64,000 nucleotides of DNA from Oceanitalea stevensii (GTDB taxonomy: Bacteria > Actinomycetota > Actinomycetes > Actinomycetales > Actinomycetaceae): positions 124,001 through 188,000 of the forward strand of contig NZ_JACSPO010000003.1 in NCBI RefSeq assembly GCF_014837105.1, read 5' to 3'. The stretch's first letter is position 1, and every line of letters starts with the position of its first letter. A program made the translations under genes and the position numbers. Positions 23,585 to 27,850 of this stretch are shown in pieces. The notes under the pieces are model-generated. The model was not told the origin of the DNA and searched no databases. It was given only the letters and a program-made list of their open reading frames with translations.

Positions 23585-24229
23585 GTGCCCTCATCAGTTC
23601 ACGTGCCGCGACGCCGCTGGTGGCGCCGCGCCCTCGTCGCCCGGTACGGCGCGCGTGGCCGCGAGCTCGCCCGGGCGGTCGACGCCGAGTACGGCGCGCT
23701 CCTTGCGACGCGTCCACCGTGGGCTGAGGGCAGCCGGGCGCTGCGCTTCCACGTCCGGCAGGCGATCCTCCCGGACCTCGCGGCCTACCGGGTGCTGAGC
23801 CGTGAGCGCGGTGACGCCGCGGTGGCCAGGGGAGTGGTGCGCGACCTCATGACGGCGCAGCTGCTGCCGGTGCTGCGGGTCGTCCGTCTCCTCGACCGGG
23901 TCGGTGTGCCCTTCGGGCGGCTGCGCCGCGTGACGCGGTGGCTGGTCCCGCGTGCGTTCCCGCCGGCGGGGTTCACCATCGGCTGGGGCAAGGACGACGA
24001 CGCCGGCCTGCGGTTCGACGTCACCTCCTGCTTCTACCTCCGGGTGCTGCGTCACTACGGCGCCCCCGAGCTGACGGGGGTGTTCTGCTACGGCGATCAG
24101 GTGGTCCTCGAGCAGATGCCACGCAGCGTGCGCCTCACCCGGGCCGGCACCCTGGCGACCGGTGCCGCTCGCTGCGACTTCCTCCTGCAGCCCGCGCGGC
24201 CTGCGGGCAGGGAGACAATGGCCCCATGA
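23585..24229 (+). CDS. L-2-amino-thiazoline-4-carboxylic acid hydrolase-like protein
   Basis: A 214-residue protein resembling the ATC hydrolase family, whose founding member opens a thiazoline ring to give cysteine derivatives; most members are uncharacterised. The recognisable part is C-terminal: RFDVTSCFYLRVLRHYGAPEL, of which TSCFY carries the conserved Cys, and VFCYGDQVVLEQM. The N-terminus is Arg-rich. The GTG start follows GAGGGGAG. The stop overlaps the start of the M3 peptidase (ATGA), so the two are translationally coupled, a pairing I cannot explain. Confidence 0.7.
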   Translation: MPSSVHVPRRRWWRRALVARYGARGRELARAVDAEYGALLATRPPWAEGSRALRFHVRQAILPDLAAYRVLSRERGDAAVARGVVRDLMTAQLLPVLRVVRLLDRVGVPFGRLRRVTRWLVPRAFPPAGFTIGWGKDDDAGLRFDVTSCFYLRVLRHYGAPELTGVFCYGDQVVLEQMPRSVRLTRAGTLATGAARCDFLLQPARPAGRETMAP

Positions 24230-26286
24230 CCGACACCACCCTCGCCGCGGACAACCCCTTCGCGGGCCCTTCGGACCTGCCCTTCGAGCTTCCCGACTTC
24301 GCCGCCGTACGCCACGAGCACCTGCGTCCCGCCATGCTCGCCGGGCTCGCGGAGCAGCGGGCCGAGTGGGAGGCCATCGCCTCCGACCCGGCCGAGCCCG
24401 ACGTCGCCAACACCCTCGAGGCGCTCGAGCTGTCCGGCAGCCTGCTGCGCCGCGTGGGTCCGGTCCTCAGCACCCTCGTCTCCTCCTGCGCGAACGACGA
24501 GCTGCGCGAGCTCGAGGCCGAGCTCGCCCCGCTCCAGTCGGCGCACTGGGACGCCCTCTACCTCGACCGCCGGATCTTCGACCGGCTCGAGGCGCTCACC
24601 GCGCAGGACCTCGACGCCGAGACCGCGTGGCTGCTCCGGACCTACCGCAAGGACTTCGTCCGCGCCGGCGTCCAGCTCGACGACGAGAGCCAGACCCGCC
24701 TGCGCGAGCTCAACTCGCGCCTCACCACCCTGGAGACGGAGTTCTCCCAGCGCGTGGTCAAGGCGATGGACGCGGGCGCCGTCCACGTCACCGACGCCTC
24801 CCGCCTCGCCGGACTGGACGAGGGCACCGTCGCCGGCCTCGCCCAGGCCGCCGCCGACCGCGGCCGCGAGGGCCACCTCATCACCCTCCAGCTGCCGACC
24901 CAGCAGGCCCTGCTCGCGCAGGCCGAGGAGCGCGCCCTGCGCGAGGAGCTCTTCACCGCCTCCGCGCTGCGCGGCACCGGCGTCGACGAGGCCAGCGACA
25001 CGCGCGCGACGCTCCTCGAGATCACGCGGCTGCGCGCCGAGCGCGCCCGGCTGCTCGGCTACGAGCACCACGCCGCCTACGTCGCCGAGGACGGCACGGC
25101 CGGCACCACCGCCGCCGTCAACGAGATGCTCGCGCGCCTCGCCCCGCCCGCCGTCGCCAACGCCGCGGCGGAGGCCGAGGAGCTGGCCCGGGCCCACGGC
25201 GCGCCGGTCGAGCCCTGGGACTGGTCCTTCCTCGCCGAGAAGGTGCGCCAGGAGCGCTTCAGCATCGACGACTCCGTCCTGCGCCCCTACCTCGAGCTCG
25301 AGCGCGTCCTGCGCGACGGCGTCTTCCACGCCGCCCACCGGCTCTTCGGGATCACGCTCACCGAGCGGCCCGGGCTGGCCGGCTACGCCGACGGCGTGCG
25401 GGTGTGGGAGGTGACCGAGGAGGACGGCAGCCCGCTGGGCCTCTTCGTCGGGGACTACTACGCCCGGGAGGGCAAGCGGGGCGGGGCGTGGATGCACAAC
25501 CTCGTCGACCAGTCCCACCTGCTCGGCCAGCGCCCCGTCGTCGTCAACAACCTCAACATCACCCGCCCGGCGCCGGGGGAGCCCACGCTGCTCACCTGGG
25601 ACGAGGTCATCACTGCGTTCCACGAGTTCGGTCACGCCCTGCACGGGCTCTTCTCCGACGTCCACCACCCCTCGCTGTCCGGCGCCAACGTGCCCCGCGA
25701 CTTCGTCGAGTACCCCTCCCAGGTCAACGAGATGTGGGCGCGCGACCCGGAGGTGCTGGCCCGCTACGCCCGCCACCACGAGACCGGCGAGCCCATGCCC
25801 ACCGAGCTGCTCGACGCGCTGCTCGCCTCCGCCCAGTACGGCGAGGGCTTTGCGACCACCGAGTACCTCGGCGCCGCGCTCCTCGACCAGGCCTGGCACC
25901 AGGTGGGCCCCGACGACGTCCCCACCGACCCTGCGGATGTCGAGGACTTCTCCACCCGGGCGCTGGAGCGCGCCGGCGCGTCGGTGCGGCTCGTGCCGCC
26001 GCGCTACCGCTCGACCTACTTCAACCACACCTTCGGCGGCGGCTACGACGCGGGCTACTACTCCTACATCTGGAGCGAGGTCCTCGACGCCGACACCGTG
26101 CGGTGGTTCGAGGCGGACGCACCCAAGGACGACGGCGGCCTGCCCGGTCGCGCCGCCGGCCAGCGCTTCCGCGAGGTGCTCCTGTCGCGCGGCCACAGCG
26201 CCGACCCGCTGAGCTTCTACCGGGAGCTCCGCGGTCGCGACGCCGACATCCGCCCGCTCCTCGAGCGTCGCGGCCTCACCACCTGA
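24226..26286 (+). CDS. M3-family zinc metallopeptidase (peptidyl-dipeptidase Dcp-like)
   Basis: Cytosolic thimet-type oligopeptidase or peptidyl-dipeptidase of 686 residues, degrading short peptides. The zinc motif HEFGH is at 466-470 inside TAFHEFGHALHGLF, with the distal Glu in YPSQVNEMW. The substrate-binding Gly/Tyr-rich loop TFGGGYDAGYYSYIW near the C-terminus is intact. The ATG lies in an ATGA overlap with the preceding gene. Downstream at 62 nt begins a perfect 46-bp palindrome that may act in 3'-end formation. Confidence 0.94.
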   Translation: MTDTTLAADNPFAGPSDLPFELPDFAAVRHEHLRPAMLAGLAEQRAEWEAIASDPAEPDVANTLEALELSGSLLRRVGPVLSTLVSSCANDELRELEAELAPLQSAHWDALYLDRRIFDRLEALTAQDLDAETAWLLRTYRKDFVRAGVQLDDESQTRLRELNSRLTTLETEFSQRVVKAMDAGAVHVTDASRLAGLDEGTVAGLAQAAADRGREGHLITLQLPTQQALLAQAEERALREELFTASALRGTGVDEASDTRATLLEITRLRAERARLLGYEHHAAYVAEDGTAGTTAAVNEMLARLAPPAVANAAAEAEELARAHGAPVEPWDWSFLAEKVRQERFSIDDSVLRPYLELERVLRDGVFHAAHRLFGITLTERPGLAGYADGVRVWEVTEEDGSPLGLFVGDYYAREGKRGGAWMHNLVDQSHLLGQRPVVVNNLNITRPAPGEPTLLTWDEVITAFHEFGHALHGLFSDVHHPSLSGANVPRDFVEYPSQVNEMWARDPEVLARYARHHETGEPMPTELLDALLASAQYGEGFATTEYLGAALLDQAWHQVGPDDVPTDPADVEDFSTRALERAGASVRLVPPRYRSTYFNHTFGGGYDAGYYSYIWSEVLDADTVRWFEADAPKDDGGLPGRAAGQRFREVLLSRGHSADPLSFYRELRGRDADIRPLLERRGLTT

Positions 26287-26347
26287 CCGCCGTCGCCTTC
26301 CTTCTCACGCCGACAGCTGGATCTCGCCCGCGCCCTCACTCACTCGT

Positions 26348-26497
26348 GCGCCGAGCGCTGAGTTGTTACCCGTAACAACTCAGCGCTCGGCGCAGGAGGA
26401 GGCGACGCCCGTAACAACTCGGCGCTCGGCGCGAGGACGCCGTAACAACTCAGCGCTCGGCGCGAGGGGACGCCCGTCACAACTCAGCGCTCGGCGC
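26348..26497. repeat. Cluster of five 22-bp repeats, the first two forming a 46-bp palindrome
   Basis: A 22-bp unit starting GTAACAACTC and ending GCTCGGCGC occurs at 26372, 26411, 26442 and 26476 on the plus strand, with one inverted copy at 26348-26369. Copies at 26348 (inverted), 26372 and 26442 are identical; 26411 and 26476 each have one substitution. The inverted and first direct copies are 2 bp apart and make a perfect hairpin. Spacers of 9-17 bp are rich in GAGG and CGCCC. The cluster fills the gap between the M3 and M20 peptidase genes. Function unknown. Confidence 0.9.
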
Positions 26498-26524
26498 GAG
26501 AGGGGGTGGGTCCGGTACCCGCGT

Positions 26525-26530
26525 TAGGGT
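26525..26530 (+). promoter_or_regulatory. -10 box for M20 peptidase gene (leaderless)
   Basis: TAGGGT ends 6 nt before the ATG at 26537. The last 22-bp repeat ends 28 bp upstream, so it could overlap the -35 region. Confidence 0.5.
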
Positions 26531-26536
26531 CGGGGC

Positions 26537-27850
26537 ATGACTGCTCCCGCTCCCACTGACGAGGTCGTCGAGATCTGCCGGCGGCTCATCCGGATCGACA
26601 CGTCGAACTACGGCGACGGCTCGGGGCCGGGGGAGCGGAAGGCCGCGGAGTACGTCGCCGAGCTCCTCACCGAGGTCGGCTGGGAGCCCGAGCTCATCGA
26701 GTCCGAGCCCGGCCGCGCGTCGGTCGTCCTGCGCATCGAGGGCACCGACCCCTCCCTGCCCGCCCTCGTCCTCCACGGACACACCGACGTCGTCCCCGCG
26801 CAGGCCGAGGACTGGCAGGTCGACCCCTTCGGGGCCGAGGTGCGCGACGGCATGATCTGGGGCCGCGGCGCCGTCGACATGAAGGACATGGACGCGATGA
26901 TCCTCGCGGTCGTCCGCGACATGGCCCGCACCGGCTGGCGGCCCCGGCGCGACGTCGTCGTCGCCCTCTTCGCCGACGAGGAGGCCGGCGGCGCCAAGGG
27001 CGCGCGCTGGCTCGTCGACCACCGCCCCGAGCTCTTCGAGGGGGCCACCGAGGCGATCAGCGAGGTGGGTGGCTACTCGGTGGAGATCGACGGCCGCCGC
27101 GTCTACCTCCTCCAGACCGCGGAGAAGGGCATCGCCTGGCTCAAGCTGATCGCCGGGGGCACCGCGGGCCACGGCTCCCAGGTCAACACCGACAACGCCG
27201 TCACCCGGCTCGCCGGCGCCGTCGCCCGGATCGGCGCGCACTCCTGGCCCCTGCACCTCACCGGCACGGTGCGCCAGCTGCTCAGCGGCGTCGCCGACCT
27301 CACCGGCACCACTTTCGACCCCGAGGACCCCGAGGGCATCGACCGCCTCGTCCGGGCGCTCGGTCCGGCGCAGAAGTTCGTCGGGGCCACGCTGCGCACC
27401 GGCGCGAACCCCACCCAGCTGAGCGCCGGGTACAAGGCGAACGTCATCCCCGGAAGCGCGGAGGCGGCCGTCGACGTCCGCTTCCTGCCCGGGGAGGAGG
27501 AGGCGGTGCGCGCGACGCTCAGCGAGCTCGCCGGGCCGGGCGTGCGCATCGAGCCGATCCACGGCGACCGCGCGCTCGAGGTGCCCTTCGAGGGCGAGCT
27601 CGTCGACCACATGGTCGCGGCCATCGACGCCGAGGACCCGGGCGCCGTCGTCCTGCCGTACATGCTCTCCGGCGGCACCGACAACAAGTCCCTCGCGCGC
27701 CTGGGCATCACCGGTTACGGCTTCGCGCCGCTCCAGCTCCCGCCCGAGCTCGACTTCGCCGGGATGTTCCACGGCGTGGACGAGCGCGTGCCGGTGGACG
27801 CCCTGCGCTTCGGCGTGCGCGTGCTCGAGCGGCTGCTGCGCACCGCCTGA
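26537..27850 (+). CDS. M20-family metallopeptidase (ArgE/DapE/ACY1 type)
   Basis: Di-zinc amidohydrolase or dipeptidase of 437 residues. Zinc-binding and catalytic motifs are LVLHGHTDVVP, WGRGAVDMKDMDA and ADEEAGG; the dimerisation domain is about 185-330; the last ligand His is in the C-terminal FHGVDERVPV. Family members act on N-acyl amino acids or dipeptides, and no finer call is safe. The neighbours encode small proteins, so it is probably a single transcription unit whose promoter adjoins the 22-bp repeat cluster. Confidence 0.92.
   Translation: MTAPAPTDEVVEICRRLIRIDTSNYGDGSGPGERKAAEYVAELLTEVGWEPELIESEPGRASVVLRIEGTDPSLPALVLHGHTDVVPAQAEDWQVDPFGAEVRDGMIWGRGAVDMKDMDAMILAVVRDMARTGWRPRRDVVVALFADEEAGGAKGARWLVDHRPELFEGATEAISEVGGYSVEIDGRRVYLLQTAEKGIAWLKLIAGGTAGHGSQVNTDNAVTRLAGAVARIGAHSWPLHLTGTVRQLLSGVADLTGTTFDPEDPEGIDRLVRALGPAQKFVGATLRTGANPTQLSAGYKANVIPGSAEAAVDVRFLPGEEEAVRATLSELAGPGVRIEPIHGDRALEVPFEGELVDHMVAAIDAEDPGAVVLPYMLSGGTDNKSLARLGITGYGFAPLQLPPELDFAGMFHGVDERVPVDALRFGVRVLERLLRTA

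What the first reader, a model, noticed from the sequence alone, without database searches (positions are those of the whole stretch)
26348..26497. Cluster of five 22-bp repeats with a perfect 46-bp palindrome between two peptidase genes
Four direct copies and one inverted copy of the same 22-bp unit fill a 150-bp gap; three copies are identical and two differ at one base. The inverted copy and first direct copy are only 2 bp apart and form a perfect hairpin 62 nt after the M3 peptidase stop; the last copy ends 28 bp before the -10 of the M20 gene. I see no other copy in the window. It may be a REP-like mobile intergenic repeat, a transcription-end structure, or a multi-site operator for one DNA-binding protein.
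Basis: seen in the sequence. Interest (0 to 1): 0.66.

Follow-up and report, generated by a model that had tools for sequence, protein, structure and literature searches.

The report
Georgenia gene-end repeats, REP-like, no transposase
The five short repeats are one stop of a genus-wide family of several hundred short DNA repeats that sit just after the ends of unrelated genes in Georgenia bacteria, stay at the same gene ends from species to species while their sequence changes, and have no recognisable enzyme that could have spread them.

Summary
In detail: five copies at 26348-26497, none expected by chance. It is not a local slippage product. The genome holds about 140-155 copies of this unit (type A) in about 45 clusters, plus about 140 copies of a sister type (GATCC/AATCC, type B). 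All share a constant half, GC[GT][CG]TCGGCG, with a variable half. Georgenia species differ in their dominant variable half. The family is absent as a repeat from about 390 other genomes of the order, and no other genus appears among 84,980 species. Copies lie just after stop codons of unrelated housekeeping genes, are enriched between convergent genes, and are mostly head-to-head pairs or direct arrays. At sites whose orthologue could be read, 35/36 (sister species 1) and 23/24 (sister species 2) still carry an element, often with another copy number or type; part of this set was chosen because it held elements. It works like REP/BIME elements but is not one by test: no Y1/RAYT transposase, no GTAG/CGTC tag, and most unit variants are not palindromic. 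Most likely it is a vertically kept gene-3'-end element (hairpin or protein-bound barrier to transcription) homogenised within each species; the mechanism is inferred. New variant of a known kind.

The parts
26308..26328 (-). divergent GATCC-type (type B) member of the same superfamily: GGCGAGATCCAGCTGTCGGCG
   Evidence: sequence; type B has 142 matches genome-wide
26348..26369 (-). type A unit, inverted copy, identical to consensus
26372..26393 (+). type A unit, identical; with the inverted copy forms the 46-bp palindrome 26348-26393 (21-bp stem)
26411..26432 (+). type A unit, one mismatch (CAACTCGG)
26442..26463 (+). type A unit, identical
26476..26497 (+). type A unit, one mismatch (GTCACAAC), followed by the usual G-rich tail GAGAGGGGG
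24226..26286 (+). upstream gene, peptidase family M3 (PF01432)
26525..26530 (+). TAGGGT, -10-like core of the M20 promoter, probably leaderless; conserved in five Georgenia species irrespective of the repeats
   Evidence: reading of promoter type from general knowledge of actinobacteria
26537..27850 (+). downstream gene, peptidase family M20 (PF01546)

Best explanation
The cluster is one site of a Georgenia-wide family of gene-3'-end repeats that works like REP/BIME elements without being REPs. Shown: a unit of about 21 bp (constant half GC[GT][CG]TCGGCG plus a variable half that differs in prevalence between species) occurs in hundreds of copies, singly, as head-to-head pairs or as direct arrays, just after stop codons and especially between convergent genes. 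The sites are inherited, while copy number, orientation and variable-half type turn over and are similar within each cluster. Inferred: the element is kept because it acts at the end of transcription units, on both strands in convergent gaps, as a barrier to read-through and/or a 3'-end stabiliser. Head-to-head pairs would do this as a long RNA hairpin; arrays without a pair would have to act through a bound factor. Copies are homogenised within a genome by an unknown copying process (template switching or conversion between copies, or an unidentified enzyme).
For: Genome-wide 140 matches in own genome at <=2 mismatches, about 160 in sister species 1, 17 in sister species 2; about 142 type-B copies. 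Outside Georgenia only scattered single matches, for type A about as many as the reversed-pattern control, and only Georgenia in 84,980 species. Elements in 20% of convergent gaps against 1% of tandem and 0% of divergent gaps in an unselected 144 kb of the own genome (p=0.003), 11/5/0% in G005 (p=0.02); in tandem gaps the cluster is nearer the stop than the start in 13/13, 19/20 and 12/13 cases. Neighbour order -+ 48 against +- 10 in the cluster loci of G000 and G001. Orthologous sites still carrying an element: 35/36 in G001, 23/24 in G003, with type exchanged at 5 and 7 (alignments). Flanking genes: FtsK, DXS, DapB, M1/M3/M16/M20 peptidases and others, with no shared function and no transposase. 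Hairpin energy.
Against: No U-tract follows the hairpins, and canonical U-tract terminators are rare in this genus with or without the element, so terminator function could not be tested by substitution. Only 17 of 45 own-genome clusters hold a tight head-to-head pair (count made); G002 and G005 mostly have direct 18-bp arrays. Arms of inverted pairs are hardly more alike (1.8 mismatches) than direct neighbours (2.2; random pairs 5.2), so arm matching is local homogenisation, not proof of hairpin selection. Nearness to stops could also result from selection against insertions in promoters. No RNA data.
Confidence: 0.5

Rival explanations
1. The unit is a double-stranded DNA site for an unidentified sequence-specific protein that binds in phased arrays at gene ends, as a roadblock or chromosome-organising protein. 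The variable half co-evolves with the protein, so the type changes genome-wide in each species.
For: Works for singles, direct arrays and pairs alike. Gaps between head-to-head type A copies fall at 1-4, 9-13, 20-22, 31-35, 43-46 and 50-54 bp, about one helical turn apart; with gaps above 6 bp, own genome n=12 R=0.70 p=0.002, one value per site over three species n=22 p=0.006 by a jitter test. Direct-array periods peak at 31-32, 42 and 51-53 (own genome p=0.002).
Against: No candidate protein; periods of 34, 36 and 18 bp are also common; G003 direct periods are not phased; type B pairs do not show the phasing (13, 15, 17, 29 bp); the one-per-site list was pruned by hand; neighbouring genes share no function.
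Confidence: 0.23
2. A purely selfish or neutral repeat: an ancient mobile element spread it, purifying selection cleared it from genes and promoters, and slippage, template switching and conversion now reshuffle the survivors. It has no host function.
For: Hundreds of near-identical copies next to unrelated genes; copy number differs at most orthologous sites; arrays with homogeneous spacers look like slippage; apparent gain or loss at a few sites.
Against: High retention at readable orthologous sites despite exchange of the sequence type; convergent gaps and the stop-proximal side preferred; no transposase of the REP kind in the genus.
Confidence: 0.22
3. Promoter operator or regulon site for the M20 gene (multi-site regulator).
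For: The last copy ends 28 bp before the -10-like TAGGGT.
Against: Only stop-proximal bias elsewhere; no common function of neighbours; TAGGGT is conserved in G002 and G005 without repeats at that site.
Confidence: 0.03
4. Local slippage duplication only.
For: None beyond local homogeneity of arrays.
Against: About 140-155 dispersed copies and conservation in sister species.
Confidence: 0.01

Closest known systems
REP elements / BIMEs / REPINs (GTAG-tagged, RAYT-associated)
   Same: Short (about 20 bp), hundreds of copies, intergenic, mostly downstream of genes, head-to-head dimers and mixed arrays, lineage-specific sequence families.
   Different: No Y1/RAYT gene in any of six Georgenia genomes; no GTAG/GTGG foot; most single-unit variants do not fold. 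GTAG repeats were reported in Proteobacteria, Cyanobacteria, Chloroflexi and the PVC group (PMC3733652).
CGTC-tagged palindromic repeats (PMC3733652)
   Same: Dispersed short repeats, HH dimers predominate, no dedicated transposase known.
   Different: Those have 8-9-bp stems with 4-5-nt loops, a CGTC tag, and rare clusters; here most units are not palindromic, clusters are common, and the host is an actinobacterium.
Bidirectional (convergent-gene) hairpin terminators
   Same: Position between convergent genes; long hairpins from head-to-head pairs.
   Different: No U-tract, and most clusters lack a tight inverted pair.
Abundant intergenic TAACTGA direct repeats of Beggiatoaceae (PMC4679880, title and abstract only)
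   Same: Genome-wide sets of short intergenic direct repeats of unknown mechanism.
   Different: 7-bp unit and an unrelated lineage; the paper itself was not read here.

Membership tests
REP / REPIN (RAYT system) | RAYT (Y1 tyrosine transposase, PF01797) in the genome | tested here: not met
   0 of 6 Georgenia genomes, while the control search rings in 6 of 14 reference genomes
REP / REPIN (RAYT system) | 5' GT[AG]G tetranucleotide at the foot of the unit | tested here: not met
   units start GTAAC, GGAAC, GGAGG, GGCGG or TGCGG; definition from PMC6006769
REP / REPIN (RAYT system) | each unit is itself an imperfect palindrome | tested here: not met
   single-unit folding -4.0 kcal/mol for the CGCT variant, -0.5 to -2.5 for other variants, not better than shuffles
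REP / REPIN (RAYT system) | many dispersed extragenic copies, often paired head-to-head | tested here: met
CGTC-tagged repeats | terminal CGTC, 8-9-bp stem, 4-5-nt loop | tested here: not met
   unit sequences and folds against Table 1 of PMC3733652
Intrinsic terminator | GC-rich hairpin followed by U-tract | tested here: not met
   hairpin met but 0 U-tract terminator-like sites in 26150-26700
Intrinsic terminator | RNA 3' ends map to it | not testable with these tools
   no transcriptome data
Rfam-described RNA element | match above gathering score | tested here: not met
   only sub-threshold microRNA-model hits caused by the hairpin
Phage- or plasmid-borne repeat | multi-copy in viral contigs | tested here: not met
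   1 single type A hit; 38 contigs with one type B hit each; plasmid collection not searched

The most novel reading that the evidence does not exclude
Georgenia has a fast-evolving, sequence-specific protein that binds helically phased unit arrays at gene 3' ends as a bidirectional transcription roadblock; its binding sites stay in place while their recognition half switches genome-wide from species to species.
Probability: 0.17. Interest if true: 0.82.

Novelty: new variant of a known kind. Interest (0 to 1): 0.52.

Why it matters
REP-like elements are usually explained by RAYT transposases. Here is a comparable gene-end repeat family in actinobacteria with no Y1/RAYT transposase in the genus, non-palindromic units in most variants, sites that stay put across species and sequences that switch type. 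It gives a tractable system (six species genomes, dozens of orthologous sites) to separate functional maintenance at gene ends from selfish spread, and it bears on how transcription ends in GC-rich bacteria in which U-tract terminators are rare.

Tried and rejected
RAYT/Y1 transposase: none in the genus. DUF222/HNH '13E12' proteins as the mobiliser: 6-14 copies per near-complete genome (1 in the 57%-complete genome), but no repeats beside them. Viral origin: single scattered hits. Rfam: nothing above threshold. Substitution for canonical terminators: such terminators are rare with or without elements, so uninformative. Common function of flanking genes: none among 22 proteins scanned. Arm matching of head-to-head pairs as proof of RNA selection: rejected, since direct neighbours are about as alike. 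Helical phasing: found for type A, not for type B pairs nor for direct periods in G003. Cellulomonas-like genus of G137: one 17-bp array in one genome, no genome-wide family.

Full report
Observation. The window holds five copies of a 22-bp unit at 26348-26497, exactly as described, with none expected by chance and no further copy within three mismatches. The inverted and first direct copies make a perfect 46-bp palindrome (21-bp stem, DNA -28.7 kcal/mol, z -11.2). The gap lies between an M3 peptidase (stop 26286) and an M20 peptidase (start 26537). A sixth, divergent relative, GGCGAGATCCAGCTGTCGGCG on the minus strand, lies at 26308-26328.

A genome-wide family. The window's genome (3.53 Mb) has 140 places matching the 18-bp core with at most two mismatches; about 155 copies in about 45 clusters are seen with a looser search of the fetched loci. 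The reversed-pattern control gives 0-1. A pattern scan of 84,980 species found the 21-mer only in Georgenia, although records near the window's own genome may be left out there. In 396 genomes of the order only Georgenia has more than 2 hits to the 17-bp degenerate pattern.

Superfamily and species types. The copies share a constant half, GC[GT][CG]TCGGCG, and differ in the other half: G000/G001 mostly GTAACAACTCA (type A), G003 also GGAATCCA/G (type B), G002 GTAAGTCG and ACAAGTCG in 18-bp tandem, G005 18-bp tandem arrays of about TGCGGAAGTCGGCTGTCG plus a few GTGCACGATCCA pairs. G000 also has 142 type B copies, at other gene ends of the same kind. Clusters comprise singles, head-to-head pairs (GTAAC heads meeting), and direct arrays of period 18, 30-36, 42 or 51-57 bp. 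Several assembly contigs begin or end in arrays.

Position. In an unselected 144 kb of the own genome, 20% of convergent, 1% of tandem and 0% of divergent gaps carry an element (Fisher p=0.003, convergent against others); in unselected G005 sequence 11%, 5% and 0% (p=0.02). In tandem gaps the cluster is nearer the stop than the start in 13/13, 19/20 and 12/13 cases. Neighbouring copies of opposite orientation are ordered -+ 48 times and +- 10 times in the G000 and G001 cluster loci. Flanking genes are unrelated housekeeping genes without transposases.

Conservation of sites with turnover of sequence. With both flanks matched, 36 G000 sites could be read in G001 and 24 in G003; 35 and 23 carry an element, with other copy numbers at most sites and another type at 5 and 7 of them. 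Part of the G001 and G003 loci had been fetched because they hold elements, which favours presence. A less biased test used flank sequences of 20 further sites to find their orthologues irrespective of repeats: among the sites resolved there, all readable G001 ones and all but one G003 ones carry an element (counted by eye). In G005, sampled without regard to repeats, 2 of 3 readable sites hold its own 18-bp type. Clear examples of type exchange are the L052 site (type A pair in G000; CGCCGAGAGCCGGATTCC..GGAATCCGGCTCTCGGCG pair in G003), L047 and L064 (same exchange), and L045 and L046 (18-bp AAGTGC arrays in G001). At the M3-M20 site itself, G001, whose upstream gene differs, has a head-to-head pair of the CTGT variant, G003 one type B copy, and G002 and G005 none, while the -10-like TAGGGT is present in all five.

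What it is not. Not REP by membership: no PF01797 protein in six Georgenia genomes, no GT[AG]G foot, and most single-unit variants do not fold. Not a canonical terminator: no U-tract. Not viral as far as searched, not an Rfam family, not linked to DUF222/HNH genes, and not a promoter regulon.

Mechanism. The position after stops, the excess between convergent genes, the -+ order and the retention of sites despite sequence turnover point to something useful at the end of transcription units; this step is inferred. Two ways to act remain. (a) RNA: tight head-to-head pairs give 20-21-bp hairpins, but only 17 of 45 own-genome clusters have such a pair, and arm identity is explained by local homogenisation (inverted pairs 1.8 mismatches, direct neighbours 2.2, random 5.2). 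(b) DNA: type A gaps between head-to-head copies fall near multiples of one helical turn (1-4, 9-13, 20-22, 31-35, 43-46, 50-54 bp; jitter test p=0.002 in G000, p=0.006 with one value per site, that list being pruned by hand), which suggests a bound protein, but the signal is absent in type B pairs and in G003 direct periods. Within-genome uniformity needs a copying process; conversion or template switching between copies fits fixed sites better than ongoing transposition, but this is inference.

Verdict. A real, genus-specific, REP-like gene-end repeat family without a REP transposase; a new variant of a known kind, with an open and testable question of function.

Noticed in passing
window 26308-26328 (-): A GATCC-type (type B) relative of the unit sits between the M3 stop and the cluster; type B has 142 exact pattern matches genome-wide.
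   Followed up: yes
L034 (G000:C9 end), L037 (C11 start), L294 (C8 end): Contigs of the draft genome begin or end inside repeat arrays, so arrays break the assembly and true copy numbers are higher than counted.
   Followed up: no
window 26524-26536: TTAGGGT directly before the M20 ATG is conserved in five Georgenia species although the upstream DNA is not: probably a leaderless promoter.
   Followed up: partly
L137:3773-3862 and the G003 orthologue of L043:12763 (L193): Convergent gaps without this family can hold another long palindrome with CATATG near its foot (CGCATATGCGGGAAAAGCGCAG...), flanked by C-rich and G-rich tails; possibly a second gene-end palindrome family.
   Followed up: no
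L158:8278-8340 (G137, another family of the order): A 17-bp tandem array (GGAACTCAGCKGTCGGC) right after a gene end resembles the Georgenia unit, but is the only such array seen among 59 genomes of that genus.
   Followed up: partly
L063:3036-3087 and L113:7757-7809: At this orthologous pair the CTCT and CGCT variants are on opposite arms in the two species, as if the palindrome had been inverted in place.
   Followed up: no
L042:3003-3046: G000 has an extra perfect GGATCC-type hairpin beside a type A pair that G001 and G003 share without it: a candidate recent gain of a whole pair.
   Followed up: partly
all six Georgenia genomes: DUF222 (13E12/HNH-type) proteins occur in 6-14 copies per near-complete genome.
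   Followed up: yes
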